From Undaria pinnatifida (Eukaryota > Sar > Phaeophyceae > Laminariales > Alariaceae): 64,000 nucleotides of DNA. Where the stretch lies: positions 6,503,151 to 6,567,150 of the forward strand of contig JABAKD010000017.1 in assembly GCA_012845835.1 (NCBI GenBank), written 5' to 3'. The notes under the pieces were generated by a model, which saw only the letters and a program-made list of their open reading frames with translations, did no database searches and was not told the DNA's origin. Both the position numbers and the translations under genes were made by a program. Positions 2,424 to 39,041 of this stretch are shown here, piece by piece (within the stretch, counting starts at the first letter, position 1; the number at the start of each line of letters is the position of its first letter).

Positions 2424-4554
2424 TCACCTCTCTCCTTCAGGAACGTGGATGCAGTGGATCGCCTTCTTATCGAACCTGAACCCCCTGATCTGTATCGCCT
2501 CGGGGACGGAAACTCCGCCACCCTCGCCGCCGCCAGCTTCGTCCCCCGTTGCCTCCCCCATCTCGGTCTTCGACAGGGCGATGGGAACCCATCCTTCGTT
2601 CTTCACCGTAAGGTTGCGGATCACCAGCGACGCTCCGGCTTCCACCTGAAGCAACACAAGAAAAACAGAACCATCGCGAAAGTGCAAACGGCGAGTATAC
2701 ATTACACAAATATTTCATAGCAAAAAGAAATGCGACGGGTTTACCAAACATAGCAGCGTCAAAAACATTTTAAGTTCACAACAAAACATTGCGACCGGGT
2801 TTACCAACCAAAAACAGAACAGCATCTAAACAGCAATCCCTTATAGTTCGCTACAGAAAAAAACAGCACCGGGTTTACCAAACAAGACCGCAACAACAAC
2901 AACAACAACAACAACAATTTACATGTATTGTAGCATTTTGCGAGGAACTAGCGCCGGTGGGTATTATCAACTCTCAACAAATGCGTGCACTGGGCAAGGG
3001 ACACAAAGAACGGGGACTTTCGTTAGGACGGCGATGATTTTCGGTACCTGGTATGCATTTCCTCAAGACCTCCGCGTTCAACCCGTAAGAAGGACCGTTA
3101 TAGGTTTGGCGACCGTGAAAAATAGCAGTGCGCCTTGCTCGTACTATTGTAACTACCGATGGGTTACAAGAACACAACAAAAAGCCGTGCCTGTGGAAGC
3201 AAGTATAATGGCGAACAAAGTACTGTACTATCGACCTATATCCTTAATGAGGACACACACCCAGTAATATGCGTGATCGGAGCATCACGCACAGCTTGCA
3301 GAGATGAGTTTCGACAACCTCTTCGATCTCACAGCTGGAGTGTATTTCCATTTCTTACGATATTAAAGCACGGGCAACTAAAGAAAATACCATTGATAGC
3401 GGCGATTACAACAGCGCAACCCTTAAAATCTAGCCCTATCGCTACCTCTACCTCTCCACACGGAGTAGGAACAGTGCTCCGTTTCGAAAAAGATGCGTGG
3501 TCAAGGGTCAAATGACTAAGGCGCGCAACAAACGAGTACGCCCCCCCCCCCGGGTTAACTCCAACCCCAACCCTATCCGTATCCCAATATTGCCCCACCG
3601 TCACCGCTACCCCGACTACCACCCCTCCCTCTACTCCTATATCTACCTCCAACCCCACCACCACGCCCCCGTCCACGCCTACCCTTAACCCCCAACCCCA
3701 ACCTCAATCCCCTACCCCTACCCGTGTCTCTGCCCCCCCCCCCCCCCTTGTCCCTCCTCCTGTCCCCAGCCCTAACCACTACCTTACTCCCCATTCTCCT
3801 CCGCGCGCCCCCTGAACCTAGCCCTACCCCCAACCCCAGCCCTACCAGCGCACCCGAATTTCAAGCACACGGCCATGCATGAGGTAAACGATGGTAACGG
3901 TGCCCTTTCCCTTGACCCCTACATTTACACCTACACTACACACCTAACCGTCGCCCTATCCCAACCCTACTCACCTCTATCTCAAGGGCGCCGTCGAGCA
4001 CGAGTCTCTCGATGGTAACTTCTCCCTTTCCCTTGATGACGAGGGTAGAGCGGGCGGTAATCGAAACCTTCGAGGGAGTAGCAAAACGGCTCCGTAGCTC
4101 CGAGTAGAAAACTGCGAAGGAGGGGCTTAGGACCACCTGGGGTCCGAGAGATGCGCTCACGCCGGCAAATTCCTTTGATCGCAGATGATGGGAGTGGAGA
4201 GTGGGGGCAGGAGGGGGGGGGGGAGGAAACAAGGAGAAAACAAAAGACGGGGGTTACTGTTGGCCATGTTGGCATTGCGGCTGGTGGTGCTGTTGCGTGC
4301 ACGGCAACGCGCATGATAAGGAAGCGCAAAAACGACAAACGCCATAGAACACGGAAACGGAAACGAAACCGAAAAAAACGAAAACGACAACAAAAATGAA
4401 GAGCAAAAGGAAAAGGAAACCAACGAAACGACAATGAACAATAACACGAAAACGACAATGAAACTGAAAACAACGAAACGACATCGCAAACGCAAACGGT
4501 AAAGACGACGAAAATGAGACGAACGCGAACACGAAAAAGAAACCGTAAACAACC

Positions 4555-4592
<38 letters not shown>

Positions 4593-7500
4593 AAAATACT
4601 GACCTGCGCCCCGCCTTCTTCCACCTTGCACCCGGCCTTCCGCATCATCTCTGCCCACACCCGGTACTGGTCAGCCTCCGCGGAAACCGCCGCCGCCGGA
4701 GGAGTCCCACTCGCCTTTTGAAGAAGGGTGGAAGGGTGGGGGTTAGCAAAGCGGACGAAATCGATTTGGAGATATGCTACTGTACGAGTACTGACGAAGG
4801 GGGTGTACTGAGTTTGTGCATAGCCGTAATCGTATGACCATAGACCCGCGCATCCATACTATGCCGGGACGGAGCACGTCGGGTTTTCACCAACCAGACA
4901 GATGTTGCTTGCACCAAGCGAGAAGCGCCGTGAGGTGTTCGGCGAGTCGCATGAAGGGTGAACTGCATCCTTCCGAGAACCGCTCGTAAGACGGACTTCA
5001 GCACCTTGTGCCTACTTTTTTGCTTATGGATGACAGCGCCAATGAGTTACTTTGTTTTTTTGGTGTGGCCACTCCAGAGACAGCAATGGGTATTACTATG
5101 TAACTGCCGCGTGGGTGCCTTACCATGTTCACACTACGTGATGCGATCATTCCCCTTGTGCGGAGTTAGGGTTCTCCACCCCGCACAATATATTTTAACT
5201 CAATAGCCATTATGTTGACCGCCAAAAACTAAACAAAACAAAAAACCGTACCCTGGTTGTCTAGCTCACGCAGTGATTGGTAGATCGGCATGTTTTACAT
5301 CGTCTTTGCCAACCAACGCCAACATCAGTATACATACGATGTTTTACAGCGTCGGTGCCAACCGAGGCCAACACTAATAGGTAGTAAGGAGGCAGCACTG
5401 AGGGAGGGGGTAGAAACGCGTAAGTACGCGGTTCAGAAGTTTTCTGCTTTAGTAGGACTGCTGAAGCCCAAACGCGTTCATCAATTGTTTTTGCAAAATA
5501 CAACGTTGAATTGAACAAGATCTGCAGATTTGCTAACGCCTACTAATACCGCTGAGACCAAAACGTGTGGATGCATTTCCCTTGTGAAAAACGTCGAGCT
5601 AAACCGCCGCCGTCGAAGGAGCTCTACTCGCCTTTGACAAAGGGGAGGGGGGGGAAGCGCATGAAAGAGGTTTTAGTATTTGATACTTCAGTATTAACAG
5701 TACAGTTGAGGCCAAAACGCGTGGATCGATCAATCGCCCTTGCAAAACAGAGCATTCGAAGTGATTGCAGATTTGCTACTCAAATACCAGGTAGTAATTT
5801 TGAGGGCAAAACTTGTGGATAAAATTCCGTTGCCAAAATAAAGCGTCAAGTGAAACCGCCGCCGTTGGAGGAGTTCTACTCGCTTTTCTCACAAGGGGAG
5901 GGGGACGTACCAGTATCATCATATCACTCAGGGTTTCCCCTCGCATCTCTAGAAAGGGGATAGGACAACTGATGGAATTCAGTTGCAGATTGGCTACTCT
6001 AGAGGTACTTATTGAGACCAAAACGTTAGGAACAATGACCCTACAACAACAAAGCGTCCGAGTGATTCTACGATAGCGCCCCCCAAAACCACCGATTTAT
6101 TTACCGAACGTTCCATGGTTACTCGACACGAGGAAGGATGCTATTAAAAAAAAATGCCTCCTTACATTCTCTTGTGTGCAAAGGACTGTCGAACCATGAC
6201 CCCGGGGTGGCAGGGGACACCGTCTTTCAGGAGATAAGACCGGGAGCTGGTTTCAAAACCGGCGACTTCTAAAATGGGGGGGCTACCGACGTGGAACGGC
6301 TCGCCCGGTTAAACCACCGCTGTCGGAGAAATTCTACTCGATATTTTGCAGACGGGGGTCGGGGTGGGGGTTAGGGAAGCAGATGAGTGGTTGGCAAATG
6401 GGCTACTGGTGATGTTCGCGGGTGTGCTACTCAAACTGGCCGCCGGAGGGGGGGCTGGGAAACCGGACGAGAGTGGTTTGTGGGTTTTACTACCTGGCGG
6501 TACTGTTGACGCAAACACGCGTGGGTGCAGTTCGAAAAGGGATCAAATCCATCGCGCCTGCGCCAATCCGCTCAAACAAACAATCGGAAACAAGTTGCTA
6601 TCAGTGCAATCCCGCTTTTCTGAACAGCAGCGTATTGTTCTTGCACGCTACGTACTGCAACTCTAAATAGCATCTCCCCATAAACGTGTGTGCAGTTTGT
6701 AAAGCGGTTAAATCATGCCGTCGTGGGGCCGGCTGAGAATACATCTGCCGCTGTGCACAGCGTACGTAGTACATACCTGGGCTTTGGCGGCGTCAGCGGT
6801 ATTGTTCTTGCAGGGAGAGAAGCACAGCCAAGGGTCCACGCTGGTGAACCCCACCTTGGCCCCCGACCCCAGCGACTTCGGGTAGTCCTGGGGAAAGCAA
6901 AAGCGTGGGCGTTGCGGACACGAAACGCGGTCAAGCACCATCGTCACGACCACCGTCATTATCGCCATCATTACCATCTCCATAGTCGCATAATCGTCAT
7001 CGTCACCATAGTCATCATCATCACATGATCACCACCACCATCACCAAGACTATCACCACCACTTACAACGTCACCAACACGACCACCAATACCGACATCA
7101 CCACTATCACCCCCCCCACACATCTCCTCCCCCCCCACCACCACTAATACCACGTCAATACATCCACCACCACCACCACAACCACCACCACCACCATCTC
7201 TCCAGTGCCAACATCACCACAACCACCATCACCATCACCGGCGCCATTAGCACCAACATCATCACCAACACCACGGACATCATCACCAGGATAACGAGTC
7301 ACCGACACGGTCACTACACCACTACCCCGATTACCACCACGTACCTGCATCATGCACTCCAAGCGTGTAGGCTTCTTGAACGTTACTTTCGTTTCGTCCG
7401 CATACTGAAAATCAGGAATGAAATGCAGGAAGCAATACCAGCGGGGCCGAGGGAGGGGGAAGGGGGGGGGCGGGCTCGGATGGATTCGGATGGGATGGAG

Positions 7501-10500
7501 AGAGGTGTAGTGGGAGGGGACTCATTATCATGCGCTGCGGTAATCTTAGAACTGGAGATGGGGGGGGGCATACACTCGATTTTTACGCACCAAAAGCAAA
7601 GCGAAAGAAAAACACGGAAAAACTAACACCAAACGGCACCACTAGTACGAGTGGTCGTGAACTGATCAAACAGTAGAAGTGCTATTCGAAACCACAAGAA
7701 GAAACAGCCAAAAACTGGCCAAGGAAAGCCTAAACATATGCGGGGCGGGGGGGGGGGGGGGGTACGAAACAGCAACAATGGGGCAACAAGAGCAACTGCA
7801 ATTGACAAATTGCAAAATGGAGGACAAATTAACCATACAGAGCATACAAAAAGCAGAAAAACTGAGCAACCTAACGCAGTGACGCAGGTCTAGTGCTAGC
7901 ACGTCGCGTAGAGGTGAGGTAGCTGCTTCCCGGCGTGTTTTCAAATGCAAACAAAAACAAAACGAAGCAAGAATAAAATCATCGACTCACCTTCGGGTTG
8001 ACGAACTCATCCAGCATTCCGCGCGTTTTTTCCAGAACCTAGTTTCGTTTTCGGCAGTTGTTCAAAACCATAAGCATTGGTTTCTTAGAGTCAGGGTTCC
8101 TAGTTCGTTTCTAGCAGTTGTTTGAAAGCACAAGCGCCGTTTTCGTTAACCGTTTGGCCCACAGAGGGGATACAGAACAGAGCTCGTACCCGCAACAGTC
8201 GAACACCAAAACTAAAACGCCATGAGCAAACCTCTAACAGCAAAAAAAAAGCACCCCGACCACCCCGACCATATCACCCGTCACCACCACCAGCAACATA
8301 CCTTACTGTAAGGGTCCACAGCGAAGACGAGCTGATTAATGTTCCCTGGGTAAGGACTAAATCCGGTGGTTGGATCGTTCACGTCCCCGCTGCCCTCTGC
8401 CTCGCGAAGCAAAGGGTCCAGCTGGTTGTACTCCACGTTTAGCTGCAGCAAAACAGTCCAGCAGAGGGAGGGATTGCGCAAGGGGGAACAAATGGGTTAT
8501 CAAAGGGGAAAGAGGGGGGGAGAGTGGGGGGGTACGTAATTCGCCGAATTTTCCCACGCAACAGACCGACGAAATCAACAGTAACCAGAACACCACGAAC
8601 AACAGATCACCACAGCAACCACAACCAACACCACCGCCATTACCATCATCACCACCATCACCCCTACTACTACCACACCTGCTGTGTCCTTTATTTGCTC
8701 GTGAGATTCTCCCTGGTTGTGCCTTTTCGTGGCGCCGTGCTGGATCCTGACGTTAGGCCGGCAATAATGCGCTAAACGCGCACACGCGCACCAACGCACA
8801 CGCACATGCACACATCCACCAAAACCACCACCGTCACAACCACCACCACCTCTACTTCCACCACCACCACTACCAACACCAACACCACCCTACTTCCCCT
8901 TTCCCCCTCTCAGCGTCATCTGGCTTTCGTCTTTGCGCGTGAGCTTGGCGATGCCCCCCACAGTCTGCTTGGCGTTAAGTGGCACAGCCAAACTGTTCAT
9001 CACCACGGCCACGACGACCAACACCACCAACACAACCACTACCACCACCACGCTGTTTTTGCTCTCACCGTCATTTGGCTGCCGTCCTTGCGCGTAAGTT
9101 TAGCGATGCCCCCCACAGCTTGCTTGGCCTTTCGCGGCACCGCCATGCTGTTCACCTCTAGCCCCATCGAAGCGCTCACGCCGAGAACCGGCGCAAGCGT
9201 ATGCAACGCGAGACCGTTTGTGTCCTTCGTGTGGGTTCAGGGGGGTAGCGGACGAAGCACAAGACAACGCGGCGTCGTTAGTGCCATGATCGTTACCTCA
9301 CCATGTCTGATATCGTTACCATTACCGCCGCCACCATAATTACCCGTAACGCTACCGCTCCCGTTCCCGTTACCGACACAATCACCGTTGCCGACGCCAT
9401 TACCGTTACAACCACCGCCACCGTTACCGCCAACGTCACCGATACCGGTAACGGCATTAATACCGATGCCCTTACCGCTACAATTACAGTTACTACTATT
9501 ACTACAAGTGCAGTTACCATCAACATTACCCCTACCGCCACAATTGCCGTTACCGCTACAAGTATTGTTTCCACCATCATTACCGTTGCTGCCACCACCA
9601 CGTTACCGTTACCGCCAACGCCACCGATACCGACACCATCATCGATACCGATGTCGCCGTAACCGCTATAATTGCCTTCACTACTACAAGTGCATTCACC
9701 ACAATTTTTACCGCTACCGCCATAATTACCACTACCTACCACCATAAATAGCCGTTACCGTTACAAACACTGCACAGTTATCCTTACAGCTACCGATACC
9801 GTTCCCGTTACAGACACCACCACCGTTACCGTTGCCATACCGTTGCCGTTACCGGCACAACTATGTACCATTACGGATACCATTACCGCCACTGCCCCTG
9901 TTCACCTGCATGAACACGACCCACTTGCACCCGTCTTTCTTCCACCCCTCCAAAGTTTTGGTGCTGTGCATGAGGGCGTGTACATCGCCGTGGCCGTGAG
10001 GCTTGGTCAGGATGGCAAACCTGTCGTCGGGGTCGAGCGCCAACGCTCCGTTGGAGTCCTGGCAAGAGACGTGACAGGGAGAAAATATGTGGCGTATTCA
10101 GCATTTAATTGGTTCGTTGCGGCAGTCGAGATGGGTTCATAGCTGGGCGCTCATGGTGCCAGGGACACGAAGAGTAGCTGCATATTATCACAGAACACAA
10201 CAGTATATTACAAAAAAATAAAATACACTCCAGCTGTTGTAGTGAATTGGGTGCATATCCCTCTGTCCTATGAAATGCCCCAGGGAGGAACATGGGTGAT
10301 GTCCCAGACCGTTACACAGTCATCTCGACCACCTCGCACACTCAACAAAACAACGAGTTATGAACAGGAGTCGGCAAAACGTTCTAGGGCGGGAGAAGGG
10401 CATGGAGTTGAAGAGGGGAGAGGTGTACTCAGTTTGTGCATGGCCGTAGCCGTATGACCTTAGACCCTCGCAGGGGGGGAACAAACACAATATTCACTGT

Positions 10501-13500
10501 GACAACCGGCATATCCTTACGCACAAATCATCTCTTTAATTCTACACCAACAGAGAGAGGAACCAGCAAAAAAAAAAAAAAATCAAGCAATAAAACTAGT
10601 ACCCTCAAGTCTTTAGACGGTCGTCCGTCACAGGCCGAAGTTGCCGTCTCCTGACACAGCTATGGAGACCCCCACACAAAAACTAGTATAACAAAGTCTA
10701 GACTGCCGTCCGTCAAAGGTCTCAAACTATTGCCGCCTCAGGAAATAGTTGCACACAGCCGTGGTCCCTCTATAGTGCGGTGCCTTACCAGATGATGACA
10801 CACGCACTAAAGTGGGGGCCCCAACTATACCGGGTTATACCAAAGCTGCGGAGCGGGGGTCATTTTTTTTTTTTGGCAGTGGCTTCTTGGTGACCCATTG
10901 CGAGTGACCCCATTGCTCGTTTTGGGATTTTACGCTCTCGTGCTTCTAAAATTGTTCGGTATGAGTCCGCAAAGGAATGGCTAGCTACGCTGCGCCACAC
11001 AAAAAACGCCTGGGGTAGTTTTCGTCAGTGAGGTACAGTCACTCGTGCGAGTGGCGAAAACCCAGCAGCGAAAAATAGGCTACTCACATCCCCCCTAGCG
11101 AAAAATAGGATGTTCACATCCCCCCTAGCGACAAAGAGGGTATTCACACACCCCCCAGCGAAAAATAGGGTATTCACATCCCCCCTAGCGTATCTTTGGC
11201 CGCTATCGCGATACTCTCGGCGTTGGAGGAGGTCGTGACAACAATTTTTCAACGCATAGAAAACTGAGGTGCCCCGAGCTATAAGGTACCACACAAGCCC
11301 GGGACCATCACCATCACTGCAAAACAGTAAAGTTGATCGCGTTCATCAAGGGCGCGGTAGGGGAGTGGGAAACTTTTAGAGGGGCTCTCGCGAGTGGCTG
11401 CCCGATATCTGTGTTTTTTAACCGTTTGTGATTTACGGTCTCGTGATATGCACCGCCGCCGTTAATTGATTTGCTACGCCGCGCCAATAACATATGCCAG
11501 GTATTTAAGATCGATTTTGAGCAGGGTGTGGAGACCTCGCGCGGGTAGCCATCACTCGGTAGTGATGTGGAGGTACATCGGTATACTATGTTTATGAAAA
11601 ATATGCTTCTTAGGCATGTTGTTCTCGGGCGACCGAGGGTTTTTCTCGCACTTTCGGCTGCGAGAAAAGCAAGGAGGCAATCCGTACATTACGGCGCATG
11701 CCTGGATGCCAGCCGAGCTCCGTGGCGGTGCTCTGAGCATTCAACGTCACCGAACTGGCCCTTTTTGCCAAAGGGTTGTGTTCCGCCTTGCTGAGACGAG
11801 CATGTGCATGGAGTATCCGTAATCTTTGTTATTTTTCAAATTAGCCCGCTCCGTTCCCACATTTTTTAGCCCGCTCCGCTTTCCCGCCCGCTGTATAACA
11901 TCATCAGTCCAGCTTGTTCACCCTCTCTAGCAGCAGCACTCATTTGTGAAAGCCACGGACGGTGCTTCTATGTGGGTATGTGTGTCGCTTCTGTATGCAT
12001 GTATCAGCGGAGTGTAGGCCATGGACACAAAAAACGATCAAGAAGAGCGGCGTTACGTTTTTCAAAACCAGCCGCTGAGGCACAACGGCAGCCGTGCTCC
12101 AAGCTTTTATGCCATCCACGGTGTACGTGTGTGGTTCGCGCACAGGAGCACGAAGAGATCGAACGACGACAATAAAATGTTCACCTCCAATCTTTGCTTC
12201 AATGCAACAAGAATGAAACACACATGGTCGGACCTCATACCAAGTAAACGAAGCATACAGCAGCAGCAAAAAACAGTAGCTCATACATGTCATTGGAACA
12301 GCTGCGTCGGGGGGTGTCGCAAGCCCAAAAGGGGGACATCCTAGACGTTCCAATGATATATATAAGCTACTGCCTTTGCTGCTGCTGTGTGCTTCGTATT
12401 CCTGGTATGGGGTCCGACGATGTGTGTTTCATTGTTGCATTGGACGTGGAAATGTTGTCGTGGTTCGACCTCCTGCTGTGCACCAACCACACATATACAC
12501 CGTGACTACTGGCCCGAAGGCGAGAGCTTAACGCACGGCTGCCGTTGTAATGCTACTGCTGCGCTGCTGTATACTGATGTTGTGGCAGCACACACTCCAC
12601 GCACACACAGAAGTACAGAAACATACACATTCACAGAAGCACCGTCTATCACAAAGGAGAAAGTTCACAGCACGGATGCTGCTGTACCATGACTACAGCA
12701 AGTACTAAGCCTGCAGAGCCGTACCAGGTATGCGATGCAGCAGCACAGCACCAGCAGGGGAAGGAGATATATAAACATATGGGCTCCTATGAGCCCTTCG
12801 CGGCCCGGCGAAACGAGACAGGAGGCAGCATGGGCCTTGCTCTGTAGATCTTGCCCAGTGATACTACCTCCCAGATGCGGCGCGAGGAGCACAACTACGC
12901 GAAAAACAGTAGCTAGGTAGCTCCGAGGTGGACGCGCGTGGGGATGCAGGTTTGCCAGGCGAGGTATGTTACATGTTTAGTGCGAGGTGTACAACAGAAG
13001 TCAGGTGCCACAGACACGTAAGGTGCTCGAGAGATGTGCTGCTGCTGTTGCTGCTGCTTGCTGTATGTAGCTGCGTTGTAACAGAAAACAGAGGGGGCGA
13101 AACACATTGGACTGGTGAGGTCGCACAGCTGGCGGAGAGCGGAACGATACATAAAAAGTGATAACGGAACCGATCATTCTTTAAATGAACAAAAAAACAG
13201 GGGTTTCCCATGCACCTTGAGACAAAGAGCCAGCTCAGCGACTTCGAATGCTCAGAGCATCGCCAGAGAGGTCAGCCGGGCTCCTGACAAGCATCGTAAT
13301 GCACCGACGGCCCCCTTGAGTGCCCCGCAGCCGAAAGTGTGAGAAAAAAACCTCGGTCGCCGGGGAACAGGATGCCGAAAGAAAGAAAATTCGTATTTAC
13401 GTAGACATATAATACAGGTATGTACAATATGTAGACTATACGTATAATTGTCATTTTTTTTTTCTTCGGACTCATCTCTTCGTGCTCGCACCTTTACCCG

Positions 13501-16500
13501 AAACGTCAGATGGGGTGAGCACAGTTCGACCCATGCGGTCACGTTGCCGGAGGTTTGGCCGCGATCCGTGCAATGTGTCGCGCGTGGCAAGCCTTCTCAA
13601 CTTTTTTGGCCTTTTCGCATGGATAAGGCAAATCCCCGGGTTTCCGCAACACCTCCGCGGGGATTGGGTTTCCGCATCCCCTATCTCCGTGTACGCACGT
13701 AAGAATTGGATGCGAGCCGGGTTTTCTGCTAGAGGGTACACGCACATTTCCCTCGCTTTGCACAGGGCACCACGCTACGATCCTGCCGCCCAGCAGCAGC
13801 AGCCTACAATTCTATGCGCGTGTGGCTGCTGTTGTAGTAGCTGATTCTTTGATCGGAGCGTGGCATTTGTCACCTCACCATACCCCATATTTCTGGTGTG
13901 CGGCCGCGTTGAGCGCATCTCAATTGCATGTCCTTAGATCACGCCAATTCGGTCGGTGATATGGGAACCTTTTTGATAGTAATTTATATACCAACCCATC
14001 CTTACATTTACGTCCAAAGAAGCCGTATTTTTCCGTACATACCAGAGGGGTAATGTTTTGTGTCGGAAATTTGGCTCACGCCACAGATGACAGGCAACAA
14101 ACATGAGGACGGCACAACGCTACATGCCCTGCCGCACAGCAGAAGTAGTGGGATACATCATGTACGTGCGCGTGGCGAGTCCTCGCTATGCTGAGGCGAG
14201 TTGCTTTCATCTCCACGAGGGGACGATTTTGAATCGGACGATAAAAACAATCTAGCGTGATTTTTCTTGACTCTAAAAAGCAAACAGCAGTGGATATAGG
14301 CGCTGATGGCACCACGCTACGATCCTGCCGCGCAGCAGCGGTCCAGCCCCCTAGCATCAGCAGCCTGCAACTCTATGCGCGTGTGGCTGCTGTTGTAGAA
14401 CCTGACTATTTGATAGGAGCGTGCCATTTGTCTACCCACCATCCCCATATTTCCGCTGTGCCAATTTGGGCGGTAATACAGGAACCTTTTTGATAGTAAT
14501 TTATATACCAACCCATCCTTACGATTACGTCCAAAGAAGCCGTATTTTCTTGTACGCAACAGGGCGGTGATGTTATGTGTCGGAGATTTTGCTCACGCCA
14601 CAGATGACAGGCACCAGACAATATGAGGACAGTACAACGATACGTGTACAACCTTGCCGCACAGCAGCAGTAGTGGAATACATCATGTACGTGCGCGTGG
14701 CGACTCCTCGCTATGCTGAGGCGAGTTGCTTTCGTCTCCACGAGGGGACGATTTTGAATCGGTCGACGATCAAAACAATCCAGCGCAATTTTTCTTGGAT
14801 CTAAAAAGCAAACAGCAGTGGATATAGGCGCTGATGATCCATTAAAGAGGGCTTCTCTGTCTCAGCGACAATACAAGCCCTACAGTTCCTCATTCCGTGC
14901 ACTCTCTGCGACGAGCTGGTGGTGAAGGGGGATGATTGCCCATCCTGGCGTGTATCACTCGTCGTCAAGTTCAATATCTGGCTCAACGAGACAAGAAGAG
15001 TACCTATTCTGAAATTGCTGATTCCCATACGAAACAACAGGAAACAAATAAACAAACATCAAAACCACGATAGAAAGACGGCGAACGGAACAACTGCTGA
15101 TTTTGTCTTTTTTGCAGGTTGAAAATCCACCTTTCGTCATTTTGTTGTTACCCACGCAAATTTTACTGCACAAGAGTCGCCCGTATAAAAAGTCCGCATC
15201 GCACGAGCACTGGCGCTGAACACGTACTGATGGGATTACCACATATTTACGTTCTCCACCACAACGGGGAGAGAGCGAACCGTACCCAGGAGGGCGCCTC
15301 CCCACACTCCGCTTGTCGAGCTGCGGACAAGAACATACTTTTCACTACCACCAGGTACATCTTATTTGCCCACAGACAGTCAGATGTTGGATGCTCGGGT
15401 TTCGTTCTTGTGCCACCCCCTTAGGCACTTCCTGGAGGGGAACCTTGTACTATATAGCACTGTACAATGCTATGTAATACTATGTAAAAAACTACAGTGT
15501 CTATCATACCGTGTCCTTGGTTTCGTTCGGAACTAGCGAAGCAGGACATTCGTAACTGTCGTCAATAAATGCGCGTTGATGATTGGCGGGCGCTTCAGGC
15601 AACTCCAAAGGGGTTCCCCGTTTTCGTCGCCGGAAATAACTTGGAACCTTTGAAATCGCTCGCAGTAAAAGCACTCACCTGAATAGCGGCAACCTTTTCC
15701 TGCTTCATGAGGGTAACTTGCCCTTCCTCCATCCCGAACCAGCCGCCTTTCTCAAGCATGTCTTGCGTTCGGTCGTGGGTGTCATCACTAACCATGATTG
15801 ATAGAGGAAGCTTGCGCCCGTTCCCGTATCTAGCAAGGGAGCAATAGCGCATCCGTACGCAGGAGGGGGGGGGGTGTACTCAGTTCTTGCATGGCTGTAG
15901 TCGTATGACCATAGACCCTCGCATCCCTACAATGCCGGGATGGAGCATGTCGGGTTTTCACAAACCACGCAGACATTGCTGGGGGGGGGGGCATATTTGT
16001 TGAACGCGGGCACTGACAACGTAACAGGCTGTTGAAAATAACACATGTCAAAGGCGAGTTTCGACCGTTGTCGTTGGTCCTCGCATTGGCCACAGCATGA
16101 GGTAGGCCGACGAAACGTTTGGGCTTCAGGTAATTACCTGGGTGAGGATATGTGCGATGTATACCCCATAGTCACTTGGCCTCAAGGAAGTGTGCGATAT
16201 GTGCAACGCACAAATGATCGTATTCACTCACTTGGCCTACCGGCGTGGCATGTGCGACATACAGCTCACATTCACTAACTTAGCGCTGCACGTGTAGAAT
16301 ATGTGCGATGTACAGCTCATAGTCAGTCACTTGGCTTGAACGTATAGGATCTGCACGGTGTACAGCCAATAGTAACTTACTCGGCCTACAGCAGGTGCAC
16401 AATTTGTGCGACGTACAGATCATCATGTTCAACTCACTTGGCCTTCCGGTGTAGAATATGTGCGACGCACAGCTCATATTTACTCACGCCCTGCAGGTGT

Positions 16501-19500
16501 AGGGTCTGATCGATGCTCATCTCAAGTAACTCACTCGCCCTGCAGGAGCTGAATAATCTGTGCGACACACAGCTCATCATTGGCCTGCCGGTGTATGATC
16601 TGTGCGACGCACAGCTCATTTTCACTTCGCCTGCCGGCGTACGACCTGTGCGACGTACATCTCATATTCATTCACTCGCCCTGCAGGTGGAGATTACGTT
16701 CGATGTTTATCCCATAACATTTCACTCGGTCTGCAGGTGTACGATCGGTGTGGTGCACAGCTCATAAGTCACCCACTTGGCCTGAGGATGTAGGATGCGT
16801 ACGATGAACAGCTCATAAAAAAAGCGTAGGATCCACGCGTCTTAAAAGCTCATACTACGGAGGATAACATCTAGTAATCAGAACTCACGATATACACAAA
16901 AATCTGTGTATTTCCTGTTTTCCTCAAGGATAGTTACGGTGTACAGATCATAGAAAGTGAAGGGTCCATGCGATGTACAGCTCGTATTACAGAGTATTTT
17001 AGTGTACCTTAGTCGGGAGGGGGGAGAAGAGCCTGCATGGTGGCCCCGGATCTGAGTTATGTCTGGGGAGTGAGAAAAGGAGACACACATGTGGAAAGAT
17101 AATAGACAGGACGAGCAAAAAACAAACACCAATTTTCATAACCTACGATATACACAAAAACCTACATATTTATCTGTTTTTGCCATCTAAATTTGGTCCT
17201 GATGACTAAACATATGTTCCCCCGTAATAGCAACTCACTTGGCCTGTAGGTGTAGAATCTGTGCGATGTACAACTCGAGGTAGGCCGTCATGGTGCAGGT
17301 CTCGCTCGGGAGACGCAGCTTGATATCCCCGTATCCCAACCTTTCTCCCAGCCCGCCCGCAACCAGAACGAACCCACAGTATTTCACCTATAGTTTAGTA
17401 AGGCAATGTCAAGGAGGGAATTAGGGGGGGGGAGGTTGTCATTTGCACCGTCATTAACGACAGCCTTCAATACGAGCAGCAGCCAGGAAAACAACGCGTT
17501 CATTCAGTCGCAATATATGTAGAAGGCTTTCCTTCGGAGTGGGCTGGAGATGGGGCCGTTTCTTGTATGCATAATTATAGTTTAGTCGGCTTTGGGCTAT
17601 TGCGCCCAATTGCAGTTGGCCTAAAGCCAACCAAACGAAGTTGTACGTGCGCAAGAAACGGTTCAAATTTTGATCGGTACAGTCATTACAGTCACACTGT
17701 CAGTACAAGCGGGTGGCGCAAGTATAAGTGTTAAACCCGTGGTAACCGTGTCTTCGCTTCCCTTTTCGTTTTCGTTTCCGTCTTCCTTTTCGTACTCGTT
17801 GCCGTGTTTGTTTTCGTTTTCGATTCCGTTTTCGTGTTGGCTTTGGTTTTCGTTTTCGCTTCCGTTTTCCGTTCTGTTTCGTCTTCATTTTCGTTTTCCA
17901 TTCCGTTTTCGTTTTCGCCAAGGCCCACCTGTTCCATCCCGCTCTTCTCGAAGGCGTCGTACTGCTCCGTCCCCAGCTCAAGGCGCTGCCCCTCCGGCAC
18001 AGAGGGTTTCCACCCAGAGAGAGGGTTGCTTCCTTCCTGTCGTACACGACATGTGCCGCCACCATCGACCCACAAAAAGTAACAACAACAGACACAAGGA
18101 CGTAGTCATAAATACTAAGGATTGTTACAAGTACGGGAGAACTCTTAGCTTACGCCTTTATACTTGAAAAAAAAAATCCGTCCGCCTTGAGTTCTACCAA
18201 CTGACCGTTTCACACAATTATCAATAAAAAAAGCTAACGACCAGCGCGCAAACAGTTAACGACCAGCAAGTGAACTTAACGGTCAATAGTTACAGCTTAA
18301 TTCGGATACTACGAGAGGTATCCGTGTTATATTTCCCCTCTGTTCCGGCACAGGGGGATTCTATCCTAAGCGGAGGTTGCTTTTCCCTGTCATACACGTC
18401 ATGCACCACCGCCATCGGCCCCACACAAGAAAAGCAACAGCAAAAGCACACCAGCACATATGCATATAAACCATTATTTACCATGATTCATCACTGTTAC
18501 GGGGAAGCTATCGACCAGCCAGCGAAAAACCGACGACGGGAAAGAGACGCTAAACGACCCTGGTACGAGCTATGCGTATTATCACGAGCGCTTGGCGCTG
18601 TACCCCGGGCAAGGAGGGCTTCCATCCCGAGACAGGCTTGCTTGCTTTCTTCCTGTCATACAAGTCATGTCGTCGACCTCACAAGCAGTTTATCGCTAGC
18701 GTGTTTGCGAGATACCAAGTTTGGTTGGGTAGGAGTTGGGTGGGAAAATGTACCAAGAATAGTACTGAAACCGTCGAACGTCACAACCCACGGCCAATCC
18801 AACCCATGAATAATCAGCGATAAATTACGAAAAGTTTTCCTACTATTAATATTAATACTTATTTGTTAACCTAGTGGGTTTAGTTGGCCTTTGCTTATGA
18901 CGTTCCTTGGTTCCAATACTATCGTTACAATAGTTTTGGTATATTTTCCAACCCCGAAAAAAATTGGAAATCGCAAACACCCTACCGCATTACAGCCTAA
19001 AACGCAAAAATAAACCAGACACCAGCAAATAAAACTAACAACCAGCCCGCCAAAACGTTAACGACCAGCAGGTAACGCTAGCGGCCATCAGGAGGTACAC
19101 AAGAGTCCGAGATATGCTTATTTTCACAATGCACTGCTCCTGCGGACAGAAGGTTTTCATCCCTAAAGAGGGTCCGGTTTAAAGGCCCCGTCGGAACATA
19201 CCCGTGTCAGCGCTCTTACCTCCGTGGCGCTCTTGGTTCAGAGTGGGTTTCGTACAGGATTTAGAACAGACATCACCACCATATAGGTTGTAGCATAGGC
19301 GTCGCCAGCACATAGGCTACTCTATAGGCATGGTCTTCATGCAGGTTTCCGTGAAGGTGTGACAATACATGACAAGCCAATTCGACCGTTCTTCACTCTG
19401 TTCTAATATATTATGGACGCTAGTCAGTCGGGATCTCCGCTGCACTTGTTCGCACCTTCGATGCCGTTAGCAGATCCCTTGCTCTCTCTACGTATGTCGC

Positions 19501-25118: not shown

Positions 25119-25215
25119 GCCGTTGTGATCGAACAGCCTGTGTTATGCCTCTTTCGGACTGAGCTGTTGGGCCGTTGTGGTCGAACAGCCTGTGTTATGC
25201 CTCTTTTGCACTGAG
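25119..25215. repeat. Twofold direct repeat
   Basis: GAACAGCCTGTGTTATGCCT recurs 62 bp apart, each preceded by GGGCCGTTGTG and followed by CTTT and an ACTGAG. Confidence 0.7.
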
Positions 25216-26119: not shown

Positions 26120-26139
26120 AAACTCCAGGGCTGTTCATG

Positions 26140-27459: not shown

Positions 27460-27760
27460 TTGTGTCATTTTCGGACCCGCGGGTCGGATCCTCGAGTCCG
27501 GCCCGCGGGGCGCCGGCACGACAAGGGCCCTCAGGCAGCTGTACGTTTTGAAAAGGCGAATCCGCAAAGCCAGATGCGCGGGTTCGACCCGCGTGTCAGC
27601 AAAAAACAACCCGCGGGTCATGGTGGCTTGACCCGCATGTGGCCCGTATCTTGCGGGTCATGACCCGACCCGACCCGCGAGATTTCCAGACCCGACCCGA
27701 CCCGCGACATTTTGAAAACCTCCTGACCCGACCCGCGAGTGGGGTCATGACTCGTGTACG
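27460..27760. repeat. GACCC minisatellite, copy 3
   Basis: GACCCGACCCGACCCGCGAGATTTCC units, densest at 27655-27745, preceded by CGGGTC-rich degenerate sequence. An isolated strong open frame in this area is repeat-driven. Confidence 0.65.
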
Positions 27761-31800: not shown

Positions 31801-33823
31801 CTCCCTCTCCAATCCTCCAATGCGAACCCCCACGCAGGACCCAGACGCCACCGGAGGGCCGGAGGACGATGAGTTCATGATGGAGTTGGAGGCTGCTAGG
31901 GCGGCCATGGAGGAGCAGACGGCAAGACGGGAGGCGTTGCGGAAGGGGGAGGAGGGGGAGGGGGGTGAGGAAGCCGAGGGGGGGCGGGGGCGCGGGGCGG
32001 GGGTGGCGGTGGCTTCGGTGGGATCGTACAACAAGGTACGTAGGGATACAGGCAGGGATACATTGCGAAGGCGGCATGAGGAGGCCGAAGGGCGGCGAGG
32101 GGGGCGGGGGGGGGGGGCTTGCAGTGACTTCGCTTGGATCGTACAGCGTGGTACATGGGGAAAGGTAGCAGTGTTTTGTTGACGGAAATAGGAGGGGAGG
32201 AGGGGGGGGGATAAGGAGGCCGGAGGCGTGCGTGGTGACGTCGTTGCTTGGATCGTACCATAGGGTGCATAGGAATACAGAGGCAGCTAGCGGTGTTTGG
32301 TGCTAGTAATTCGGCTCATATTGTAGCCTATCGATTCCGATTTTCTTGCGTAAGCTTTTTTGTACTATACACCCTTGTGGGACTTGATGGAATACCTACA
32401 GCGTCGAAACACCTCGACGAATGCAAGCACCAGCCCAACGAAGTAGCCCGGGCTGTCGGCGAGAGGAGTGCAGTGGAACTGCAGTCTTCCGACCTGTATG
32501 AAGCGTGTTCGTCGTTGCTTTTCTTGCACTGCCGCGCTCGTGTTCCAAGAGTCTTGCCGTGGTCGCACTCGTTGTCTTTTTGGTCGCTCCCACGCGTTCC
32601 CTTGTTAGTGGGCATCTTGTCAGACGGGATACCGGCGCTTACGTGGAACCCCGCACTGTAGTGCGTACACGTAAAAGAGGTCGTGACAAGCGCACTAAAC
32701 TGGAGCCCCGCATCAGAGGTTACCGCGCTATCGTGGGACCACGAGTACTATTCACATGGGGGTAAAAAAAAAAGCTTTATTTTTCCCCATCCGCCGGAGG
32801 ATAAAATAAAATAAAAAAAAAAGTTAAAAAAGGGTGAATAGTGGCTACTATCATGTGTTTTTGTGTTTCCTTCGCTTCTCCGTAAATGTTTTTATGTAAT
32901 ACAAACGGTAAGAGGTGGCATCAGTTTTTTTTTGCTCCTCATATGTAGAGCTCTCCAACGCATCCCTCCATTGGCTGCAAGGAAAATACAAGCGAAATCC
33001 GATTGTTACTCCAACAGCCTAGGTATAGACAGTAAGACATAGCGATGGGTACTACGTGTAAAATATACGGGGTAGTCTTCCCTGGGTAGCAAGCGGTATG
33101 GTCGGTTTTCAGGCGCGAGTAGTGAGACGTATGCACCAGTATGGACCTGGCACATCATAGGCTGACTCCCGAATTCACTTTTATATGTTTCTGGTGGAGA
33201 CATGAATTGCGTCAGCTGTGATATATGCGTGTACCACCTTTGGTTCGTTTGTGTTTTTTTTTCTCTCTGGGGTATTTCTCAGCTCCAGAGTGACTGGAGC
33301 CTGTCCTGAGACCACGGACTTGATTATGCGAGTTAATGTGAGAACAACAACACTATTAATAGTAACAACACCACACCACCACCAACAACAACAAATAACA
33401 ACGGGTTTCCAGTTGTAAAGGCGTTGAAAATTCCTTAGTTGAGGACCCTTGTCAGACATATATTGGTTTGGCTGAAACTGCTACCTCTATATGGTGCAGG
33501 ACACCTGCTCAGAACACGAGCAATGAGACTGTATCCGGTCGCCCCGGTGGCGTATCAGGTTATCCTCGAGCCTGGTATAGGTCAGTTTCGTGAGTTCGAG
33601 CCCCGCCGAGTGCATACTCGTATAAATTCGTTGGGACTTTTTCTTGTGGACAAATTGACTTGCGGAAAGCGCGAGAGCGTGAGTTAGCAACATTCGATGA
33701 ACAATCGACGAGCAGTGGGATTGCTGAACCCTATGCGCGATAAAAATTGAAGGCAAGAACCGGGGAGGAGAAGGGATGACACCTGTGACCACGGCTTGTC
33801 CAGAAGCTGGAAAGTGAAAGTGT

Positions 33824-33859
<36 letters not shown>

Positions 33860-35867
33860 ATAGAACCAGGTTGAGATTTTCAGGGAAACAAGAAATCCAG
33901 GAGCCGTTACGCTGAAGCCGGTGTGGAACGCACCCTTTCGAAGTTGAGAAACCCAGTCTGAGCCAGTATTCCAGTTTCTTAATTGATGCCCTATGCTGTA
34001 TCAAAAATTATGTCGATCTCTACTATTTTTCATCTGCAGTATATCTGTCTATTGCTTAGTCTGAGTGTAAATATATTTGCTGTATCATACGTGTTTCTCT
34101 CGTTCAGGCGGGACTTCTCCAACACGCGGAACAAATGAAGCGAGCGATTCCTTGGGAGGAGACGCTGACCGTTTGCGACGTGCCTCTCGAGCTTGAAGAC
34201 GTGCATGACGATCTCAGACGGTGAGAGCGCAGCCTCACCCCACCTGTTTCATTTTGCTTTCGTTGCTTGGACTTGTTTTTGGGTGTTCGGTGTGCTTTCA
34301 TGTTTGTAACATATAGTTTCTCTTTTATCACTCTTTCTATTTCTCTTATCTCTTTGCCTCTGCCCCCCACCCCCCCTCCCCCGAGTTCTTTCCCTTCTTG
34401 CTGTGTTGAATGCTTTGTGTTATTTTTTTGTCTCGTTTATTGTTGTGGTGTGTGTTGCTTGTTCCTTGTGCGTGCTTGTTTGCTTTGCTGCGTCCTTGTT
34501 TGCTGTAATTTCGTTGCGTCACTCTCTTTTCTTGTTGGCTTGTTTTTATTGCTGGAGGAGGTGCACGATGATTTCAGACAGTCAGATCTCCCCGCCCCCC
34601 CCCTGCGCTTGGTCGGTGAGAGTCCCCTCTCCCCCCCCCGGCGCTTGGTCGGTGAGAGTCCCCCCCCCTTGGTCGGTAGGGGTGCCCCCCCCCCCCCCGC
34701 GCGGGCACTTGGTCCGCCTCCCCCCCCCCTGCGCTTGGTCCGGGGCAAGTTCTCGCCCTTTATCGCTCACCCCCTCGGTCGCTGGCTTGATGAGTCTCTT
34801 ATTCGAGTGCTGCTGTTTCCGCCCTGCACAAAAACTTGAAAAATAGCGAGGTGGGCTTCTACAACAACACTTTGGAGGCGGTAAAGCGGGGCCGATCACT
34901 CCTCGCCGCGGCTGCGGTGCCGTACAAGCGACCCGAGGACTTCCTGTGCGAGATGATCAAGAGCGACACGCACATGGACAAGGTAAATGCTCAAACGTCC
35001 GTGTTATATTTTGGTGCTTTGTTCCTTTTTCTCTATTTGCATTCAATCGCATCTGTTGCTGTGTTTTTGTTCTTGCTTTGCTTTTTGCTTTTTTGTTTTT
35101 TACTTTTGGCTTCATGTTTTTTTTGTTCGCTATTTTGTACCAGGTAGATCGTTGCTCTTTGCTTGATTTTTTTCTTGCGTTCTATGATGTATTTCGGCCC
35201 TTTTGCTTTTGTTTTCTACTGTTGACGTTTTTCATTTATTTTCAGATCAAGGATGCGTTGATCGTAGAGCATCGCATGACCCCCTCCCCCCCCCTCCCTT
35301 GCCACACCGGAATCAAATGAACCCATACCACATTGCCATCCGATATGCAAGAAAATTTGCACAAGGTGCCAAAGTCCTCCTGGCATGTGGTTCTTAGTGG
35401 GATGCAGCTCACCCTTCATGCGGCTTGCCGAACACCCCACGGCGCTTCTCGCGTGGTGCCCGTGATGTCTGTCTGGTCGCTGAAAACGCGACTTGCCCCG
35501 TCCCGGCGTTGTGGGTGTGCGAGGGTCAATGGTCATATGACAACGGCTATGCGTGAAAGGAGTGCAACCCCCCCCCCCCCGCTTCCCCCAACCACTCACA
35601 CCCACATCCACCCTCGCCATTCCCCCATCCTCCCCCCCTACACTCACGCTATCTCCTATTTTCCAGATCAAGGACAAGCTTATCTTCGAGCAGCAGAAGA
35701 TGGACGCGTTCGAGCAGCGCAAGGCGAGGCAGGACCAGCGCAAGTACGCGAAGGAGTTGTCGTCCAACAAACAGGCCGAGAAGTCCAAGAGAAAGAAGGA
35801 AGGCCTCGAGGAGATTGAGCAGTGGAAGAAGGGGGCCAAGCGAGCCAGGTGCGGCTTGTTGCTGTTG

Positions 35868-35899
<32 letters not shown>

Positions 35900-38004
35900 G
35901 GTGGTGGTGGTGGTGGTGGTGGTGGTTGTTGTTGTTGTTTTTCTTGTTCTTGTTGTTGTTGTTGTTGTTGTTTTTCTTGTTCTTGTTGTTGTTGTTGTTG
36001 TTGCTGTTGTCGGTGCTTTTGCTGGTGCTGTTGTTGTCGGTGTTGGTGCGGGTGTTGTGGTTGGTGGTGTTGGTGCTAGTGTCAGTGTTGGTGTGCAAAA
36101 GTCGAAGCGACAGAAGGAGAGCTTCGGGGAGATAGGGCGGTGGCAGAAGGAGACCATGGAACACAAATCTTTTCTTACTATTGGTGTTGATGCGGTGGTA
36201 GTGATGGCGGTGGAGGTGCTGGTATTGGTAGTGTTGGTGTTTACAAACGAAGAGGGAGTGGCTCGAGGAGATAAGGCCACAGGAGAAGGGGGTATATATC
36301 ACCAGGTGTTGTTCTGAGTTCTTGTGCTTAATTTCGTTCTTGTGCTGGTTCGTGTCAGTGTCGCTGTCCTCGTGGTTATCGTTTTGATGGTCCTCGTTGT
36401 TTTCGACGGTGTTTTGTTTGTGTTGCTGCTGCTTTAGTCTGCGCTAAGGGTATACCAGTACAAAACGTTCTGCCAGCGTACGAAGCACCTGTGATGGAGG
36501 TGTCTCCCATAATATAACCCTTACGACCAGCCCGCGAAATGTCAGCAACCAGCAATGTAAAGTGCACATCAATCGGTTAGTTTTACCACTGGTATGTATA
36601 TACTCGTATACACCTTCGGCGCTTTGTTTTGTTGATCGCAGGGGAGGCCCGCTCGCAGATGACGACGGACTTGATGCTGTCCTATCCGGGGGTGGAGCTA
36701 GAGGAGGCCGAGGAGGTAAGCAACCCAGAAAACAGACGAATCCAAAGCCACATGATCGGCGATCTTTATCGAGGTGGATCGTTTTTGTTTTGCCGCGCGT
36801 CGGGGTAGTGGTGGTGATTGGGGTGGTGGTGGTGGTGGTGTAAGGCCGTCATATTTTGTCCTCCTCAAGACGGGTTTTATTGTTCCGTTCACGTATGTAC
36901 TCACTGGCACTAAGGGGAGTCGCCGACCTATCATCCTGTTGACCCTGGTACTAGCTGGTGCAAGAGGGAGTTGCCGACCTATGTGCTTCATGCGGACCCC
37001 CCCCCCCCCCCCCCCCCCTAACACGCTTGAACGAGTCATCAAACACAACGTACAAACCCACATAGTATACTAAGTACCAACAACGCAGCTTGCAAAGATG
37101 AGTATCGACCCTAAATTTGTTGAACTCACAGCTGACGTCGTTAGAATATTTTTTTAAAATATGAGGTTCGACAAAATCCTCGATCTCGCAGCTGTGGTGC
37201 ATTTTGGACTTTTAATAATAAAAGTGCGGGTGCGCTCCAGGCGTGGGATGCGCTGCTGTGTTTTTTTTGTGCATTTTGATTGAATACCCTGGTATGTTTT
37301 TCTGTTTTCTGCATTTTTTTATTGCGTTGTTCTTAAATCCTTTTCTTCCTTATTTCTTTTCCTCATTCTTTTTGCCTTTTTTTGGCTTCATGTTTTCCAC
37401 CATTTTTCTTGCTCCCATGATCATTTTTGTGTTTCCATCATGAATTTATTTAGAAAGTTCTTTAAAGATACGTTAGCTGTGAACTCAATCAATGTAAAAG
37501 TTTGCAAGCTTTTTCGGCTTTGCGTTCTGATTCAATTTTGCGTTCTTATTTTTGTCACAGGGAATGGGGGACGGAACACGAAGCGAGAGGGCAAGGATAA
37601 GAAGTACGGCTTCGGGGGCAAGAAGAGACAAAAGGGGCAAAGCGATCCTCGCTCCCTCAACGACCTCAGCGACTACAACCCCAAGCAGGGTGGCTCGGGG
37701 AGGTCTAGGCAGGCAAGAGAGCGTTGGAGGTAGTGGTGGTGGTGCTGCTGTTGGTGTACCTTTCGTGATGCGTTAAATGTATGGTAAGAACGGTAGTCGC
37801 CGACCTACCGTAGTATCCCTTGAGAACGCCTCCCTCATTGAAAACGCCCACCCCGAAAAAAATCGGCCGGGGATAACATGGAAAAAATGATAACGCAGGG
37901 AGCGAGCTTTTTTTTTTCCGCCCTCCTACCCTTGAGTTCGCCCCGGAGCATTTTTTTTTTTTTAGGGCACCTTTACGTGACGTTCCCAAAAATCCAAGGC
38001 ATTT

Positions 38005-38061
<57 letters not shown>

Positions 38062-39041
38062 ATTTTTCCACATTAAAAACCTATGCGACAAGTTTAAAAT
38101 CGCGCACCACCTCGGTACTCCTCCCAACAAACGTACGACGTGCGATATCACAATGTGCCGGTGCGCACCGCCACCCAGGCACATGCATGGCCGCATGACA
38201 ACGCGCCTAACACCAAGCAGCAAGCGGTACTATAGCGAACGATTGCTTATTGATTACGTAAACCGCCGTTGATCCTAAGGGTATACCTACGGTAGGAATT
38301 TTAGCCCCGGGGAATGTTCTTGTTTGTGTGGAAATATCCCCCCCCTGCCTTTCCGAACGCCCCGGGGAGCTTAAAAATAATAATGAAGTTATAGGCGCCC
38401 CGCGAGGCTTTCTCAAGGGATACTGCTGTATGTTGTTCATGAGGACATACACGCCCCGTAGCAGGCGTGACCAGAGCATCAAGCACAGCTTGCCAATATG
38501 AGTTTCGACGAAAACCTCGTTCTCACAGCTGCGTCTTTGTTTGCAACTTTTTTTTGTATAAATGTACAAACCTTTTAGATTCCGAAGATCGCTTCGTTTT
38601 AAACTACGAAGTTCAAGTCGTGTAATCCACACTCCCCCACACCTTGTACGAATTAGGTAATACGTATGACAATAGGAACTTAATGCCCCCCCATCCGTCT
38701 CTCCGCCCCCTCCCGCTGCCCCGTTCCTCCCTTGACCTTGTACGCAGCAGTTAAATGTATCAATGATAGCTTAACCCCCCCCCCCCACGTGTAGGGATGC
38801 GAGGATCTGTGGTCTTGGCTATGCCCAAAATGAGTACAACCCCCCCGTTACCTGCCCCCTCAAGCGCGTCTCGAAGGGACGCGTGATCGACGGTTGAATG
38901 GCTAAGGCAAGCGACAAATGACGCCCCCCCAACTCCCCCCCCCCAACTATTTACTACTTTATGCAGAAACCCGTGAAGGGCACGAATCGGCCTGGAAAGT
39001 CGGTGCGCACGAAGAACAAGCAGAGGAAAGGACGAAATTGA
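28805..39041 (+). CDS. EBP2: EBP2-family ribosomal RNA processing protein, 8 exons, complete
   Basis: EBP2 is a nucleolar factor needed for 27S pre-rRNA processing and 60S subunit assembly. The spliced protein is 327 residues (human EBP2 about 306). It starts MPKGRKRAIKAAMADEVE, followed by an acidic and Gly/Glu-rich stretch (exon 2). The conserved core then begins with GLLQHAEQMKRAIPWEETL and RREVGFYNNTLEAVKRG. PYKRPEDFLCEMIKSD (exon 4) is the family signature. A basic helical segment follows (exon 5, IKDKLIFEQQKMDAF to KKGAKRAR). The C-terminal tail has DDDGLDAVLSGG, KYGFGGKKRQKG and KGTNRPGKSVRTKNKQRK, matching the GFGGKK and RPGK tail of the family. The basic tail suits RNA binding and nucleolar targeting. 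It is divergent from USP and convergent with the WW gene. Identification rests on several collinear motifs across seven introns and is firm. Confidence 0.93.
28859..31837. other. EBP2 intron 1
   Basis: Apart from the direct repeat at 29695-30055 and G/T-rich sequence at 30550-30850, I see nothing definite. The motif TTTATTTTTCCCCATCC at about 30131 recurs at 32774 in intron 2. Confidence 0.5.
29695..30055. repeat. Direct repeat of ~65 bp spaced 291 bp, in EBP2 intron 1
   Basis: GTAACGAAGACCACTGATAG with GGGACAGCTTACGCT...CCTACAATGGGA occurs at about 29695-29760 and 29986-30051. The spacer is unique here. This could be a small direct-repeat element. Confidence 0.6.
32077..32285 (+). repeat. 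Two echoes of the EBP2 exon 2 donor edge
   Basis: Copies at 32077-32160 and 32190-32285 repeat the Gly/Glu-rich end of exon 2 and its donor (GGATCGTACAACAAG|GTACG at 32021-32040). The first copy reads GGATCGTACAGCGTGGTACA and the second GGATCGTACCATAGGGTGCA. The flanking GGGATACAG and GAGGAGGCCG blocks are shared too, so the unit is about 120 bp in tandem. Confidence 0.72.
33533..33610 (+). mobile_element. tRNA-like head of a SINE, in EBP2 intron 2
   Basis: TGGCGTATCAGG (33549-33560) fits the pol III A box apart from one base, and GAGTTCGAGCC (33593-33603) resembles the B box, 33 bp apart. No clean tRNA cloverleaf can be drawn. An A-run lies at 33825-33857, possibly the tail of this or another retroposed copy. 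Confidence 0.45.
33825..33857. repeat. Poly(A) run
   Basis: About 33 consecutive A residues in EBP2 intron 2, about 215 bp downstream of the tRNA-like sequence. Confidence 0.9.
34551..34592 (+). repeat. Echo of the EBP2 exon 3 donor edge
   Basis: GTGCACGATGATTTCAGACA followed by GTCAGA copies the exon 3 end GTGCATGACGATCTCAGACG followed by GTGAGA (34201-34226). It lies 330 bp into intron 3 and is followed by two or three GCTTGGTCGGTGAGAGTCCC repeats (34610-34680). Confidence 0.72.
34600..34740. repeat. C-rich tandem repeat with GCTTGGTCGGTGAGAG units
   Basis: Three to four units separated by C-runs, in EBP2 intron 3 just after the exon 3 echo. The Pro-rich open frames here are shadows. Confidence 0.65.
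35230..35283 (+). repeat. Echo of the EBP2 exon 5 acceptor edge, with intact acceptor
   Basis: TTATTTTCAG|ATCAAGGATGCGTTGATC copies TATTTTCCAG|ATCAAGGACAAGCTTATC at 35657-35684, 420 bp upstream of the true exon. It translates to IKDALIVEHRMT against IKDKLIFEQQKMD. The copied acceptor has a T-rich tract and AG. Use of it would soon meet a stop (35318-35320). Confidence 0.78.
35396..35565 (-). mobile_element. Partial R410 element in EBP2 intron 4
   Basis: CACCCTTCATGCGGCTTGCC, CGGCGCTTCTCGCGTGG and AAAACGCGACTTGCCCCG match the reverse-orientation R410 at 20880-21050. It lies between the exon 5 echo and the true exon 5. Confidence 0.55.
35849..36095. repeat. (GTT)n/(GTG)n microsatellite directly after the EBP2 exon 5 donor
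   Basis: About 240 bp of imperfect GTTGTTGTT and GTGGTGGTG. The 354-residue minus-strand frame and several Val/Leu-rich plus frames over it are repeat artefacts. Confidence 0.85.
36096..36290 (+). repeat. Two echoes of the 3' part of EBP2 exon 5
   Basis: 36096-36155 reads KSKRQKESFGEIGRWQKE and 36243-36290 reads TKREWLEEIRPQEKG in another frame. Both resemble KSKRKKEGLEEIEQWKKG at the end of exon 5 (35785-35840). They are separated by GTT/GTG repeat and lie in intron 5. Neither keeps the exact exon 5 donor. Confidence 0.7.
36980..37230 (+). mobile_element. MITE-4 copy in EBP2 intron 6
   Basis: CGCAGCTTGCAAAGATGAGT and GAACTCACAGCTGACG, with a second GATCTCGCAGCTG block, match the family; a C-run at 36999-37018 precedes it. 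Confidence 0.5.
38003..38060. repeat. (TTG)n microsatellite in EBP2 intron 7
   Basis: About 19 TTG units, nearly perfect. Confidence 0.9.
38430..38560 (+). mobile_element. MITE-4 copy in EBP2 intron 7
   Basis: CATGAGGACATACACGCC, GCATCAAGCACAGCTTGCC and GTTCTCACAGCTGCG match the copy at 3235-3385 in order. Confidence 0.55.

What the first reader, a model, noticed from the sequence alone, without database searches (positions are those of the whole stretch)
2424..39041. Splice-junction echoes: introns carry decayed direct copies of the adjacent exon edge with its splice site
Seen directly: copies of exon-intron junctions lie in the neighbouring intron for USP exons 5, 6, 9, 11, 14, 15 (perhaps 16) and EBP2 exons 2, 3, 5 (both edges). 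Copies of donor edges sit downstream of the exon and copies of acceptor edges upstream, as tandem duplication across the junction would produce. Inference: intron growth in this lineage may proceed by repeated local duplication spanning splice sites, leaving spare, decaying splice signals. I know of intron gain by internal tandem duplication in the literature, but not of this systematic pattern.
Basis: partly seen in the sequence, partly recalled or inferred. Interest (0 to 1): 0.88.

Follow-up and report, generated by a model that had tools for sequence, protein, structure and literature searches.

The report
Exon-edge copies littering kelp-like introns
In this large, kelp-like genome, introns contain decaying copies of the edge of the neighbouring exon together with its splice site, most likely left behind by short tandem duplications that happened to cross the exon-intron border, so each copy is a datable fossil of how the intron grew.

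Summary
In the UDP-sugar pyrophosphorylase (USP) and EBP2 genes, 9 of 38 exon edges have a strong same-strand copy (z>6) in the intron at that same junction; 0 of 38 do in its reverse complement, 0 of 1,368 in other introns or on the exon's other side. In conserved genes sampled elsewhere, 17 of 150 edges show it against 0 of 150 reverse-complement and 0 of 150 wrong-side tests; leaving out a family where I had seen a hint beforehand, 13 of 125. Some edges have arrays: 13 copies at one USP donor, 7 at one CCT donor.

The copies decay neutrally: codon positions 1/2 differ by about 0.15, position 3 by 0.25, intron flanks by 0.22; stops 10 seen, 9.3 expected. Local repeats are mostly direct (171 versus 13 inverted), and 7 of 11 at 90% identity or more are exactly head-to-tail, 60-133 bp.

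Best explanation: indifferent short tandem duplication, tolerated across a junction because the outermost original splice site is kept (inferred). Junctions are near the intronic background, donors perhaps above it.

The parts
2424..20027 (-). USP (UDP-sugar pyrophosphorylase) gene body as modelled: exons A 2424-2645, B 3975-4172, C 4604-4714, D 6777-6887, E 7345-7404, F 7991-8038, G 8302-8442, H 9069-9224, I 9906-10058, J 15679-15829, K 17239-17387, L 17929-18036, N 19456-19542, M 19923-20027; 5' exon(s) not found
   Evidence: phmmer against MbUSP 9uml and Leishmania USP; joined exons give one open frame of 600 codons with the stop
31838..39041 (+). EBP2 gene body as modelled: exons X2 31838-32035, X3 34108-34220, X4 34847-34982, X5 35667-35848, X6 36642-36715, X7 37561-37712, X8 38967-39041 (stop); 5' exon not found
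18343..18450 (-). echo of exon L acceptor edge, 81/109 identical, acceptor AG kept in the alignment
18581..18670 (-). echo of exon L acceptor edge, 65/89 identical, AG kept
   Evidence: a third, weaker piece at 19126-19173
16137..16983 (-). array of about 15 decayed ~50-bp copies of the exon K donor edge (exon end plus GTGAGT), some partial; 16140-16830 has a single place in the genome
   Evidence: (13 copies pass the threshold there)
17004..17126 (-). dispersed ~120-bp repeat between exon K and most of its array: a later insertion separating the copies (inferred)
   Evidence: similar places on many contigs (40 of 909 candidates scored)
8859..8999 (-). echo of exon H donor edge, 107/141 identical, offset 155-163, so nearly a full tandem unit; donor GT now CT
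6310..6386 (-). echo of exon C acceptor edge, 56/76 identical
5851..5897 (-). echo of exon C acceptor edge, 37/46 identical
5600..5654 (-). echo of exon C acceptor edge, 45/57 identical, AG kept
8098..8144 (-). copy of the exon F acceptor region, intron side and AG
3815..3914 (-). marginal echo of exon B donor edge, 66/99 identical
   Evidence: z 4.9-5.5
32100..32162 (+). echo of EBP2 X2 donor edge, 49/62 identical, GT kept
32191..32281 (+). second echo of EBP2 X2 donor edge, 61/91 identical
34551..34606 (+). echo of EBP2 X3 donor edge, 41/56 identical, GT kept
35237..35272 (+). echo of EBP2 X5 acceptor edge, AG kept
36099..36224 (+). echo of EBP2 X5 donor edge, 89/128 identical, GT lost

Best explanation
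The genome undergoes frequent short (mostly about 60-130 bp) head-to-tail duplications. One that lies wholly in coding sequence usually damages the protein; one that crosses a junction does not, because splicing can still use the outermost original site (the first donor, or the last acceptor), and the spare exon edge with its splice site becomes intron. Some units are duplicated again into arrays. Later mutation, indels and repeat insertion separate the copies. The exon is held by selection while the echo drifts, so old events stay visible at exon edges and can be dated. Shown: copies are local, direct, junction-crossing, private in the one array tested, and decay neutrally; most of the youngest local repeats are exactly tandem. 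Inferred: that the echoes themselves began as such tandem units, break repair as the cause, which splice site is used, and the share of intron growth.
For: 9 of 38 window edges and 17 of 150 edges in other genes have an own-junction same-strand copy; all 188 reverse-complement tests and all 184 same-strand other-side tests are negative at z>6. 171 direct versus 13 inverted repeats within 1.6 kb in 309.8 kb; array members are counted pair by pair. Of 11 direct repeats at 90% identity or more, 7 have length equal to spacing (ratio 0.99-1.07, 60-133 bp), 1 is a multi-unit array (2.06), 2 are spaced by multiples of an array unit (363 = 4 x 91; 90 = 3 x 30) and 1 is spaced. The 9 tandem-like units at 85% or more are 60-133 bp. 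Exon-echo mismatch: codon positions 1 and 2 0.161 and 0.131, position 3 0.247, intron 0.215; p3/p12 1.7 (95% 1.19-2.36), near the factor 2 expected if only the exon is constrained. Stops in echoes 10 versus 9.3 expected, in 644 codons from all copies, array members included. Splice dinucleotide kept in 20 of 24 aligned echoes. Region of the K array found at one place in the genome, with a dispersed repeat before it. Rice precedent: tandem duplications are highly enriched among 50-200 bp mutations (PMC7971508, passages).
Against: Many echoes lie further away (102-916 bp) than they are long: length/offset is below 0.5 in 17 of 25, so adjacency must have been lost, or some were pasted at a distance; some of these are array members. 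The one clearly spaced repeat among the 11 youngest is itself an exon echo (L026 donor: 106 bp matched at offset 255, 90% in its exon part). Of 17 direct repeats at 88% or more, 8 have length/offset below 0.6. No echo above 90% identity that is still exactly adjacent was seen in the sample. Donor edges exceed the background, which an indifferent process does not predict except through better detection. No relative's genome was available to show the state before duplication. Edges in the sampled loci were called with a splice-site score based on a recalled general consensus, without RNA.
Confidence: 0.82

Rival explanations
1. Junction-targeted growth: duplication is favoured at 5' splice sites (for example through transcription-linked breaks), so introns grow from their donor end.
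For: Donors 16 of 84 versus acceptors 8 of 97 (p=0.047); sampled-loci donors 11 of 66 versus background 6.6% (p=0.004). The largest arrays start at donors (K with 13, L032 with 7). Window introns show more local direct copies than the rest of the window (57/378 versus 36/634).
Against: Acceptor calls are less reliable, which dilutes them; acceptors equal the background (5 of 78, p=1); window edges do not differ from window introns (p=0.34); tests are not independent; the slow-evolving exon half raises detection at edges.
Confidence: 0.12
2. Echoes are alternative or formerly coding exon copies (exon duplication with alternative splicing).
For: Most keep the splice dinucleotide (20 of 24); the exon H echo keeps an open frame with 12 of 16 differences at third positions; in-frame stop or frameshift in only 5 of 25 best copies. 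One exon (L009, at 8242) has copies of both its sides.
Against: Same-strand other-side matches 0 of 184; stops over all copies at the neutral rate; p3/p12 only 1.7.
Confidence: 0.04
3. Copies were pasted at a short distance (template switching or templated insertion) rather than tandemly duplicated.
For: Offset larger than match length in most echoes (17 of 25 below 0.5), including the L026 echo, 93% over 57 bp and spaced 255 bp.
Against: Inverted copies are rare (13 versus 171), while such mechanisms are recalled to make both orientations; most of the youngest repeats are tandem; an insertion between copies is seen.
Confidence: 0.13
4. Chance or low-complexity matches, or assembly error.
For: Introns are rich in simple repeats; some controls pass z>4 (14 of 1,368).
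Against: At z>6 the reverse-complement, other-side and other-intron controls are zero and other-locus controls 1 of 152; holds after masking; exon parts of the copies mostly differ by 10-28%.
Confidence: 0.01

Closest known systems
Short tandem duplications from patch-mediated break repair (rice; PMC7971508, passages seen) and from fill-in of break ends (mouse cells; PMC8355091, passages seen)
   Same: Direct; in most young cases head-to-tail, 60-133 bp, with at most 6 bp of extra match beyond the unit
   Different: Here seen through their effect on splice junctions and kept as decayed copies; most echoes are no longer adjacent; the repair pathway is untested
[quoted passage not shown] potato RdRp PMC4974935, abstract and introduction seen; Drosophila PMC2891723, abstract seen)
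   Same: Tandem duplication; in potato the segment crosses an intron-exon boundary
   Different: No sign of a new intron in the window's two genes: 0 of 38 end tests; an existing intron gets longer and the spare junction is left unused (inferred)
Minisatellites in introns (recalled)
   Same: Tandem arrays, unit about 50 bp in the K array
   Different: Founder unit is an exon edge with its splice site, private to one gene in the one case tested

Membership tests
Short tandem duplication by break repair | Copies in direct orientation, local | tested here: met
   171 direct versus 13 inverted within 1.6 kb; edges own 17 of 150 versus 0 of 150 reverse complement
Short tandem duplication by break repair | Copy spacing equals unit length | tested here: inconclusive
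   Of 17 direct repeats at 88% or more, 7 have ratio 0.99-1.07, 2 are arrays (2.06, 3.77), 8 are 0.20-0.51; 17 of 25 echoes are below 0.5
Short tandem duplication by break repair | Unit size about 50-125 bp | tested here: met
   The 9 tandem-like units at 85% or more are 60-133 bp; of all 24, 17 are 56-133 and 7 are 166-542
Short tandem duplication by break repair | Shown as an insertion against an ancestral state; dependence on end joining | not testable with these tools
   No relative's genome held; no experiment
Intron gain by tandem duplication | Intron is bounded by the two copies (exon-edge copy at the far end of the intron) | tested here: not met
   0 of 38 tests at z>4, window genes only
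Intron gain by tandem duplication | Intron absent in relatives | not testable with these tools
   No relative's genome held
Duplicated alternative exons | Whole exon copied with both splice sites | tested here: not met
   Same-strand other-side matches 0 of 184
Duplicated alternative exons | Copy under coding constraint | tested here: not met
   Stops 10 versus 9.3 expected; p3/p12 1.7, 95% 1.19-2.36
Introner or transposable element | Similar copies at many places in the genome | tested here: not met
   K array region: one place. H copy: elsewhere only its simple-repeat intron part, query 170-228. Only these two were tested

The most novel reading that the evidence does not exclude
Introns in this lineage grow preferentially from their donor end: 5' splice-site regions are hot spots for repeated short duplication, giving introns with arrays of spare 5' splice sites that the spliceosome must ignore, a large natural experiment in splice-site choice.
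Probability: 0.12. Interest if true: 0.8.

Novelty: new variant of a known kind. Interest (0 to 1): 0.56.

Why it matters
How introns lengthen is usually unreadable because intron sequence turns over. Here the constrained exon is a fixed reference, so each echo dates one step of growth (one-branch divergence at codon positions 1 and 2) and shows its size and direction. It also gives natural cases where an intron holds a splice site scoring about as high as the one presumably in use, so splice-site choice can be tested with RNA. Kelp introns are reported longer than Ectocarpus introns (1,057, 1,203 and 1,816 bp versus about 703 bp; passages of PMC4421812, PMC6507550, PMC11836290), and this is a candidate contributor, not yet measured.

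Tried and rejected
The PF00443 search found nothing in the window because USP here is UDP-sugar pyrophosphorylase; PF01704 also missed the window's gene. The 'far' control wrapped onto nearby sequence in the intron rows and is discarded. The extended alignments overlapped themselves (offset 0) in 12 of 25 rows; its per-case rows are discarded and redone. The codon counts (longer alignments: 77/441, 55/439, 116/445) give the same picture. Considered and rejected: chance, transposons, functional exon copies, intron gain by duplication. Seven literature searches aimed at the pattern showed no description of systematic junction-crossing echoes in their listings; the library is open-access PMC only and I opened nine papers, none in full, so this is weak evidence of absence.

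Choice of rows: of 79 family matches lay in the fetched stretches and were used, some with internal stops; of 81, 43 were used. For the UDPGP family I had noticed overlapping matches on C33 and C34 in the list before fetching them (note), so that family was not a blind choice: it gives 4 of 25, UCH 3 of 46, CCT 10 of 79. In one search, 8 edges were skipped as too masked. L022 was dropped from the background and repeat counts for overlap with L021. After the recount, the confidence of the best explanation was lowered from 0.85 to 0.82 and the pasting rival raised from 0.10 to 0.13, because 7, not 8, of the 17 young repeats are exactly tandem and the clearly spaced one is an echo.
Full report
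What is there. The window lies in a 511.1-Mb genome of 68 contigs whose genes have introns. I take it for a kelp from recall, genome size (Undaria 511.3 Mb in a table of PMC12116465, passages) and long introns; no call proves the species. The first gene is UDP-sugar pyrophosphorylase on the minus strand: phmmer matches MbUSP exon by exon, and 14 exons join into one open frame of 600 codons with the stop (one search printed 601 before one acceptor was moved by 3 bases). First exons were not found for either.

Noticed in passing
window 17004-17126: Dispersed repeat of about 120 bp with similar places on many contigs (40 of 909 candidates scored, 74-87% identity): a short element family in this genome.
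   Followed up: partly
window 4799-5304, 20563-21052, 15870-15980, 35334-35552, 43252-43403, 55431-55554: Another dispersed repeat with several copies in both orientations inside the window (81% over 519 bp for the best pair).
   Followed up: no
window 13766-14836: Head-to-tail duplication of about 542 bp (79% identical) inside the long USP intron between exons J and I.
   Followed up: no
window 12082-12548: Stretch that matches its own reverse complement (68% over 511 aligned columns), like a large fold-back element.
   Followed up: no
window 19922 and 37713: USP exon M and EBP2 exon X7 appear to use GC donors (GC-AG introns); the frame supports it, no RNA checked.
   Followed up: no
window introns versus 21300-30000 and 41000-62300: Introns show more local direct copies than the rest of the window (57/378 versus 36/634); could mean duplication is linked to transcription, but only two genes were compared and hits are clustered.
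   Followed up: no
L032, donor of the exon covering HMM positions 220-279: CCT gene intron with 7 copies of the exon's donor edge within 700 bp.
   Followed up: partly
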